A DNA stretch of 64,000 nucleotides from Lusitaniella coriacea LEGE 07157 (GTDB lineage: Bacteria; Cyanobacteriota; Cyanobacteriia; Cyanobacteriales; Spirulinaceae), in the NCBI RefSeq assembly GCF_015207425.1, contig NZ_JADEWZ010000010.1, positions 62,001 through 126,000 of the forward strand, in the 5' to 3' direction. A program made the position numbers and the translations under genes. The notes below the pieces were generated by a model that saw nothing but the letters and a program-made list of their open reading frames with translations, had not been told where the DNA came from and did not search any database. Positions 23,693 to 24,566 of the stretch are shown here, piece after piece (the first letter of the stretch is position 1; the number at the start of each line of letters is the position of its first letter).

Positions 23693-24067
23693 ATGTCTCA
23701 TTTCACCACCATCAACGTCCAGATCAAAAATGGCGATATCCTGCACCAAACCCTACAGGAATTAGGATATTCCGTCGAATCCAATACCTTCGTTCGAGGC
23801 TATCAAGGCAACCAAACCCAAGCAGAATACGTGCTGCGCCAAAAAAATGGCTACGACTTAGGATTCCGTCGTCAGGGAGAAACCTACGAATTGGTTGCAG
23901 ACTTTTGGGGTGCAAAAATCGATCGCAACGCCTTTGTTAATCAAGTCAACCAAAAATATGCCTACAACACCCTAATGGCATCCGTCGAAGAACAAGGATT
24001 CAATATCGAAGAAGAGGAAAACCTATCCGATGGAACGATTCGAGTAGTCGTCGGGAAATGGGTTTAA
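23693..24067 (+). CDS. ycf35: DUF1257 protein, Ycf35-like
   Basis: The 124 residues from ATG 23693 (ribosome site AGAAGGAAAC) match DUF1257: SHFTTINVQIKNGDIL, QAEYVLRQKNGYDLGFRRQG and YELVADFWG. The family is found in cyanobacteria and plastids; its function is not known. It lies 36 bases after ycf46 and both are plastid-retained gene families, so a shared role is plausible. I see no ferredoxin-like gene after it, which often accompanies DUF1257. Confidence 0.93.
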   Translation: MSHFTTINVQIKNGDILHQTLQELGYSVESNTFVRGYQGNQTQAEYVLRQKNGYDLGFRRQGETYELVADFWGAKIDRNAFVNQVNQKYAYNTLMASVEEQGFNIEEEENLSDGTIRVVVGKWV

Positions 24068-24076
24068 TTGAGTTTT

Positions 24077-24175
24077 GATCTCAAATCCTCCTAATTGCAC
24101 ATCATGAAAATTCTCCGTGTCACCGCGTCACCGTGTCAGTCCTCACTGAGGGCATTCAACCGGATTTTATATGAC
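24077..24175. repeat. Dispersed foldback repeat family A, copy 1
   Basis: About 99 bases beginning TCAAATCCTCCTAATTGCAC and ending in CGGATTTTATATGAC, with an internal ACCGTGTC/ACCGCGTC satellite segment. The two ends are imperfect inverted repeats of about 22 bases. Matching copies occur near 28711-28890, 45472-45523, 50477-50575 and (inverted) 57941-57985. Confidence 0.75.
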
Positions 24176-24177
24176 GG

Positions 24178-24566
24178 CTCCCCCATTGGCACATAGGGCA
24201 TCGAGAGCGCATTAAAGATGGGGGCGCGGCATGGTCGATGCGGCTCTGCGAGATCGCGCCCTTGCCGAATTTGGGATAGAATTAATCCATTCGCGCGTTA
24301 ACGGGCGTGGGATAACAGCCTTGCAATCCGGATGGTGGATCGCCATCCTTGCGCGCAGTTCAACCACGCATCACTAGCCGTCTCTTGACTGTACGGACTT
24401 ACGGTAACTAGTCATCTTACGGTTTGGCTTCCGAGAAGCTGAAGGTTGACTAGTTACCGAGTCCGCTTGAGTTGAGCCGTCTAGTCCCAAGGGATTTACG
24501 AAGGGGTAACCCGCTCGTAGCGCGCGATTTATATTAAGGGTGTATGCAATACGCCCTCTTCATATT
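24178..24566 (+). ncRNA. Highly structured RNA candidate, stand-alone HEARO/omega-RNA-like
   Basis: No gene fits this 390-base stretch, but it holds several nested helices. CCCCCAT (24180-24186) pairs with ATGGGGG (24218-24224). GCGTGG (24305-24310) pairs with CCACGC (24365-24370) around a GGATGG/CCATCC hairpin. CGGACT plus GGTAACTAGTCA (24395-24415) pair with TGACTAGTTACC plus AGTCCG (24448-24466) around an inner hairpin (GGCTTC/GAAGCT). ACGAAGGG and CCCGCTCGT enclose a GTAA tetraloop (24499-24519). A terminator-like hairpin follows. The architecture recalls HEARO RNAs linked to iscB, which can occur alone; that identity is a hypothesis, as is the strand. Confidence 0.5.
24237..24260. repeat. 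24-bp dispersed repeat (GATGCGGCTC...), copy 1
   Basis: This 24-base sequence, beginning GATGCGGCTCTGCGA and ending GATCGCGCC, is identical to 34676-34699, where it lies inside a glycosyltransferase gene. Here it is embedded in the structured RNA candidate. Confidence 0.8.

What the first reader, a model, noticed from the sequence alone, without database searches (positions are those of the whole stretch)
24178..24566. Structured non-coding RNA candidate, possibly a stand-alone HEARO/omega-type RNA
Seen in sequence: several nested perfect stems (CCCCCAT/ATGGGGG; GCGTGG/CCACGC; a CGGACT plus 12-bp GGTAACTAGTCA stem around an inner hairpin, total 24395-24466; a hairpin with a GTAA tetraloop at 24499-24519) and a terminator-like hairpin at the end, with no protein-coding gene. 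Known: HEARO RNAs are large multi-stem RNAs found next to iscB nucleases and also as lone copies in cyanobacteria. Inference: this may be a lone guide-like RNA moved in trans, or a new class. It also contains a 24-bp repeat identical to one in a coding gene.
Basis: partly seen in the sequence, partly recalled or inferred. Interest (0 to 1): 0.78.

Follow-up and report, generated by a model that had tools for sequence, protein, structure and literature searches.

The report
Lone RNA of a scattered retron
The stretch is the RNA part of a cyanobacterial retron (a reverse-transcriptase-based system of a kind that often defends bacteria against viruses), and in this genome its three parts, RNA, reverse transcriptase and zinc-finger protein, sit far apart instead of side by side, so programs that look for neighbouring genes would miss it.

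Summary
Window 24291-24527 (+) is the msr-msd-type non-coding RNA of a type XIII retron. Homologues occur in about 60 of 293 sampled genomes of the same cyanobacterial order. In the full arrangement they lie between a SWIM zinc-finger gene (PADLOC SWIM_XIII) and a retron reverse transcriptase gene (RT_XIII). The a1/a2 closing stem and a ~113-nt msd hairpin covary strongly, and the window copy keeps all 82 strongly conserved positions. In this genome the only RNA copy, the only RT_XIII and the only SWIM_XIII lie on three contigs, at least 75 kb apart by contig geometry. Strong RNA and strong RT_XIII occur in exactly the same 60 genomes. Of the 59 genomes with all three parts, 22 have them together, 26 have RNA+SWIM with RT elsewhere, 5 have RNA+RT with SWIM elsewhere, and 6 have all apart (4 assembly-proof). 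Best reading: a dispersed, trans-acting, probably domesticated type XIII retron. That msDNA is made and that the system defends are inferred. I found no earlier report of unlinked retrons, but the paper defining type XIII (Mestre 2020) could not be read here.

The parts
24291..24527 (+). Retron type XIII non-coding RNA (msr-msd type), the only copy in the genome
   Evidence: CM R1 234.5 bits, E 2e-67, 24292-24530; blastn homologues in 28 of 98 relatives, E down to 3e-39; single copy in genome; fold z -6.0
24291..24322 (+). a1 arm of the long closing stem, ending in the invariant CCTT (24319-24322)
   Evidence: Cognate a1/a2 duplex -34.0 kcal/mol, best of 45 possible partners for this copy; CCUU/AAGG paired in 40 of 40 sequences
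24323..24323 (+). Candidate priming (branching) guanosine, invariant, directly after a1; alternative G at 24318 in CAGC
   Evidence: Invariant column in 40 sequences; position as in known retrons (PMC6868368); assignment is inference
24323..24352 (+). msr hairpin (GGATGGTG 24330-24337 / CGCCATCC 24341-24348, plus GCA/TGC)
   Evidence: Helices 2 and 3, 97-99% of cells paired, 4 pairs with changes on both sides
24373..24485 (+). msd: 113-nt hairpin domain (ACTAG/CTAGT base; CGGACT/AGTCCG and GGTAACTAGTCA/TGACTAGTTACC upper stem), putative reverse-transcription template
   Evidence: Cognate arms rank first in 45 of 45 homologues; length 110-115 nt throughout; covariation score 0.354 against 0.136 shuffled
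24501..24527 (+). a2 arm of the closing stem (starts with the invariant AAGG); reverse transcription would start just 5' of it
   Evidence: start of template is inference
24537..24557 (+). Terminator-like hairpin followed by T-rich stretch
   Evidence: 1 found, 0.6 expected in shuffles: weak
24277..24282 (+). Possible -10 box (TAGAAT) just upstream of a1
   Evidence: Read from sequence; no -35 box; suggestive only
24229..24258 (+). 30-bp dispersed repeat just upstream, not part of the RNA
   Evidence: 15 places in the genome including itself

Best explanation
Window 24291-24527 is the msr-msd-type non-coding RNA of a type XIII retron whose three parts are dispersed over the chromosome. The RNA stands alone at this locus, the retron reverse transcriptase (RT_XIII, 540 aa) is on contig C14 and the SWIM zinc-finger partner (SWIM_XIII, 548 aa) is on contig C12. 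Mechanism: the RNA is transcribed on its own (or by read-through from the DUF1257/ycf35-type gene), folds by its a1/a2 stem, and is bound in trans by the RT. The RT primes on the 2'-OH of a conserved G next to a1 and copies the msd hairpin into msDNA. The RT-msDNA complex then controls the SWIM protein, by analogy with other retrons a growth-stopping effector released when a phage disturbs the complex. Shown here: identity, structure, covariation, co-occurrence, intact partners, physical separation. Inferred: transcription, msDNA synthesis, the priming G, the effector role and defence.
For: Homologues sit ~20 bp downstream of SWIM_XIII and directly upstream of RT_XIII, same strand (G014: gaps of 20 and 22 bp). 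G000 has exactly one strong match each: RNA C10, RT C14:120696-122111, SWIM C12:63792-65420. PADLOC confirms both proteins (RT_XIII E 3e-194, SWIM_XIII E 2e-248). Strong RNA and strong RT_XIII occur in exactly the same 60 of 293 genomes, although linked in only 28. All 59 RTs read keep NAxxH, VTG and YADD, and all 58 SWIM proteins read keep CxC...CxH. a1/a2 and msd arms covary by cognate-pair tests and column counts. The window copy has 0 deviations at 82 conserved columns and 10 double compensatory pair changes against its relative G004. Minimum separations in G000 are 129, 77 and 75 kb. RT and SWIM distances correlate (r 0.86) in 26 genomes with a part elsewhere.
Against: No transcript, msDNA or phenotype was seen. 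The promoter at the lone locus is not clear (only a -10-like box). The common retron AGC priming context (CAGC 24316-24319) is present in the window but not in all homologues, so the priming G is uncertain. Type XIII retrons have, to my knowledge, no published functional test.
Confidence: 0.88

Rival explanations
1. Retron-derived but dead: the RNA is a stranded remnant of a broken retron, left behind when the genes moved.
For: It stands alone between ordinary genes; dispersed repeats lie directly upstream; degraded second copies exist elsewhere (e.g. L033, L037).
Against: 0 deviations at 82 conserved columns and compensatory changes against G004; a1/a2 best with its own partner; it is the only copy while RT and SWIM are intact; no sampled genome has strong RT_XIII without the RNA.
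Confidence: 0.07
2. The RNA is a regulatory or stabilising 3'-UTR element that goes with the SWIM gene and is not the RT's template.
For: In 48 of 59 genomes it lies near SWIM, usually ~20 bp after its stop codon.
Against: In 5 genomes it lies beside RT and not SWIM, in G000 and others beside neither; the a1/a2 plus msd anatomy with an invariant G after a1 is that of retron RNAs; weak model hits beside a sister clade of retron RTs occur without any SWIM gene.
Confidence: 0.04
3. Stand-alone HEARO or IscB/TnpB omega RNA.
Against: No HEARO match at gathering or at E up to 10 with permissive filters; no iscB/tnpB seen beside the window copy or in the homologue loci inspected; neighbours are retron genes.
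Confidence: 0.005
4. Fragment of a group II intron or template RNA of a diversity-generating retroelement.
For: Association with a reverse transcriptase.
Against: No Rfam group II match; the RT is retron-type with NAxxH and VTG, and its best PADLOC models are retron RTs. A DGR target repeat was not looked for.
Confidence: 0.005

Closest known systems
Retron type XIII (RT_XIII + SWIM_XIII, PADLOC-DB; classification credited to Mestre et al. 2020, cited in PMC9252829)
   Same: Same RT family and same SWIM partner in the same genome; homologous RNA between or beside them in relatives.
   Different: In this genome all three parts are unlinked; in more than half of the genomes with all three at least one part is elsewhere. 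The RT carries a ~70-aa C-terminal extension.
Classical retrons such as Retron-Eco1 (Ec86)
   Same: a1/a2 closing stem, G right after a1, msr hairpin, long msd hairpin, RT with NAxxH, VTG and YADD (features from PMC6868368).
   Different: Classical retrons are described as one compact polycistronic cassette; this one is spread over three loci. msDNA not shown.
HEARO / IscB omega RNA (RF02033)
   Same: Large lone structured RNA in cyanobacteria.
   Different: No covariance match; no IscB.

Membership tests
Retron type XIII | Retron reverse transcriptase of the RT_XIII family in the genome | tested here: met
   C14:120696-122111, PDLC02956 E 3e-194; NAxxH, VTG, YADD present
Retron type XIII | SWIM zinc-finger partner protein | tested here: met
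   C12:63792-65420, PDLC02972 E 2e-248, CTC...CEH intact
Retron type XIII | Non-coding RNA homologous to the RNA beside linked type XIII genes | tested here: met
Retron type XIII | RNA with complementary 5'/3' ends (a1/a2), priming G beside a1, and msd hairpin | tested here: met
   a1/a2 and msd covary; exact priming G uncertain
Retron type XIII | RNA, RT and effector encoded in one compact cassette | tested here: not met
   Three contigs, minimum 75-129 kb apart; met in 22 of 59 relatives. Hence filed as a dispersed variant, with linkage dropped as a defining feature on the strength of the relatives.
Retron type XIII | Produces branched msDNA | not testable with these tools
   needs wet-lab work
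Retron type XIII | Anti-phage effect | not testable with these tools
   needs wet-lab work
HEARO (RF02033) | Match to covariance model | tested here: not met
   none at E up to 10
HEARO (RF02033) | Adjacent or related iscB | tested here: not met
   not among ORFs and family hits beside the window copy or in the homologue loci inspected
Group II intron fragment | Match to intron covariance models | tested here: not met

The most novel reading that the evidence does not exclude
A host-domesticated retron that works entirely in trans: in several cyanobacterial lineages the template RNA, reverse transcriptase and SWIM effector became separate chromosomal genes, repeatedly lost linkage, yet are always kept together and co-evolve, so the system is inherited as a cellular pathway and no longer as a transferable defence cassette, perhaps with the RT's added C-terminal domain helping it find its partners.
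Probability: 0.55. Interest if true: 0.78.

Novelty: new variant of a known kind. Interest (0 to 1): 0.68.

Why it matters
Retrons are described and detected as compact cassettes. If their parts can be unlinked and still be kept together, neighbourhood-based surveys undercount them and leave 'orphan' RTs, RNAs and SWIM proteins unexplained. The six unlinked and 31 partly linked genomes form a natural series for asking whether a retron can be domesticated, how RT and RNA recognise each other in trans, and what the untested SWIM effector does. A covariance model of the type XIII RNA makes the search direct.

Tried and rejected
HEARO, omega RNA and group II intron by Rfam at permissive threshold: only chance microRNA-like hits to the msd hairpin and a weak Cyano-2 hit. 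Plasmid collection: no match. Viral contigs: no match to the conserved 3' pattern. Promoter scan of the lone locus: nothing on the + strand. Dispersed repeats as the cause of dispersal: the 24100-24180 repeat (about 44 other places) and the 30-bp repeat have no listed copy beside the C12 SWIM or C14 RT genes, so they do not explain the dispersal; not pursued. A second RNA copy beside the RT or SWIM in G000: none by CM. Assembly breaks as the cause of 'unlinked': excluded for G000, G004, G007, G010 by contig-end distances, G007 being on one 5.4-Mb contig; not excluded for G006 and G243. Mestre et al. 2020 is not held, so whether it already drew the type XIII RNA or noted unlinked cases could not be checked; searches for such reports found none.

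Full report
Observation. No listed ORF covers it. Its neighbours are a glycogen/starch synthase-type gene, an AAA ATPase, a DUF1257 (ycf35-type) gene ending at 24067, and an LTXXQ (Spy-type) gene on the other strand. No Rfam family reaches its threshold in the window, and at E up to 10 only chance microRNA-like hits to the perfect hairpin and a weak Cyano-2 hit appear. The HEARO idea is therefore not supported.

Homologues. A blastn of the stretch against 99 genomes (G000 and 98 relatives) found matches in 28 relatives besides G000, up to 78% identity over ~200 bases, with sharp common boundaries. A DNA pattern from the alignment found 46 contigs among GTDB genomes, all cyanobacterial by title: Moorena, Tychonema, Calothrix, Trichodesmium, Fischerella, Chlorogloeopsis, Oscillatoria, Spirulina and others. 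It found none in viral contigs, and a blastn found none in plasmids.

What the neighbours are. In most homologues the RNA begins ~20 bases after the stop codon of a ~550-aa protein with a C-terminal SWIM zinc finger. In several a second gene follows directly. PADLOC identifies the first as SWIM_XIII (E 8e-215) and the second as RT_XIII (E 2e-202), and Pfam calls the second a reverse transcriptase. The order SWIM - RNA - RT, all on one strand with gaps of 20 and 22 bases in G014, is that of a type XIII retron with its RNA just upstream of the RT.

Anatomy. Three tests, none of which used the RT or SWIM genes, support a retron-type RNA. (1) The 5' and 3' ends pair with each other: over 45 diverse copies the cognate a1/a2 duplex averages -28.3 kcal/mol against -17.5 for swapped partners (0 of 10,000 permutations as low), and the window copy prefers its own partner of all 45 (-34.0). 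(2) The ~113-nt msd domain has nearly constant length but a freely varying, nearly perfect stem: cognate arms rank first in 45 of 45. (3) On a structure-naive MAFFT alignment of 40 copies, 94.3% of cells pair, 26 of 47 pairs have changes on both sides, and the covariation score is 0.354 against 0.136 in shuffles and at most 0.094 when slid. The innermost a1/a2 pairs CCUU/AAGG never vary and are followed by an invariant G (24323), the place where known retrons prime reverse transcription (PMC6868368). Another candidate is G24318 in CAGC, a context listed in the same review, but it is not conserved across the family.

The three parts in this genome. The genome has one RNA (C10:86292-86530, the window copy), one RT_XIII (C14:120696-122111, minus) and one SWIM_XIII (C12:63792-65420, plus). 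The proteins are full length and confirmed by PADLOC. Even if the contigs were adjacent end to end, the parts would be at least 129 kb (RNA-SWIM), 77 kb (RNA-RT) and 75 kb (SWIM-RT) apart. No second RNA lies near the RT or SWIM gene.

Across the order. In 293 genomes, strong RNA hits (over 100 bits) occur in 60 and strong RT_XIII hits (E below 1e-180) in the same 60; SWIM_XIII occurs in 59 of these. Among the 59 with all three, 22 have all within 20 kb, 26 have RNA+SWIM with RT elsewhere, 5 have RNA+RT with SWIM elsewhere, and 6 have none linked (G000, G004, G006, G007, G010, G243). Twenty-five of these separations cannot be assembly effects, four of them with all three parts apart. G007 (contig length equal to that of ESFC-1, KB904821.1) is a single 5.4-Mb contig with RNA-RT 1.1 Mb and RNA-SWIM 45 kb apart. 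On the SWIM tree the RT-RNA linkage changed at least 12 times and RNA-SWIM linkage at least 6 times, some of which may be contig breaks. RT and SWIM distances correlate at r 0.86 in 26 genomes with a part elsewhere, against at most 0.28 in 2,000 permutations; shared species history explains part of this.

Is the lone copy alive? All 59 RTs keep NAxxH, VTG and YADD and all 58 readable SWIM proteins keep their metal ligands. The window RNA has no deviation at 82 columns conserved in the other copies, while some other lone copies have 3-10. Against its relative G004, also fully unlinked, 10 stem pairs differ on both sides and still pair. Drift in a dead remnant would not do this, so I rate the remnant reading at 7%.

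Mechanism. Inferred from retron biology: the lone RNA is transcribed, bound in trans by the RT, and partly copied into msDNA starting near 24500 and running through the msd hairpin. The complex holds the SWIM protein until a trigger, by analogy with the effector-sequestering model of other retrons (abstract of PMC12548924). What the SWIM protein does is unknown. Dispersal argues that the system is now inherited with the chromosome and is probably domesticated, since it can no longer move as a unit.

Known versus new. Type XIII retrons are a known class in PADLOC. The review consulted describes a retron as one compact polycistronic cassette (PMC6868368), and the dispersed arrangement departs from that. 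I found no paper describing unlinked retrons, but the defining paper for type XIII is not held here, so the novelty of the RNA structure itself is unverified. Verdict: a new variant of a known kind.

Noticed in passing
L117 6484-8106 (G000 RT), also RTs of G004, G006, G007, G010, G015: These RTs have a ~70-aa C-terminal extension (tail after VTG of 150-176 aa against 76-92 in the other 53); sequence like ..CYKQGSKLKVRVVSPGYNPDWNVQFPRNLREEGARF.. in five of them, no Pfam match in G000 or G004. All six RTs are unlinked from the RNA.
   Followed up: partly
G116, G210, G282, G118, G134, G131 C4, G156 C396: Weak hits of the RNA model (44-70 bits) lie 130-450 bp from a sister clade of retron RTs (longer ORF in most) with no SWIM gene nearby: probably the RNA of a related retron type.
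   Followed up: no
L030, L031, L033, L037: Two RNA copies within about 0.3-1.3 kb; in L031 an antisense DUF6745 gene lies between them, and one copy of some pairs has extra sequence in the msd.
   Followed up: no
window 24100-24180: Interspersed repeat with about 44 other places in the genome, 78-98% identical, directly upstream of the RNA locus.
   Followed up: partly
window 24229-24258: 30-bp repeat with 14 other full or partial copies in the genome, some perfect.
   Followed up: partly
L046 5652-5890 (Tychonema bourrellyi): The 5' part of this RNA copy (a1 and msr) is replaced by sequence that looks like SWIM coding sequence, so it is probably a recombined or dead copy.
   Followed up: no
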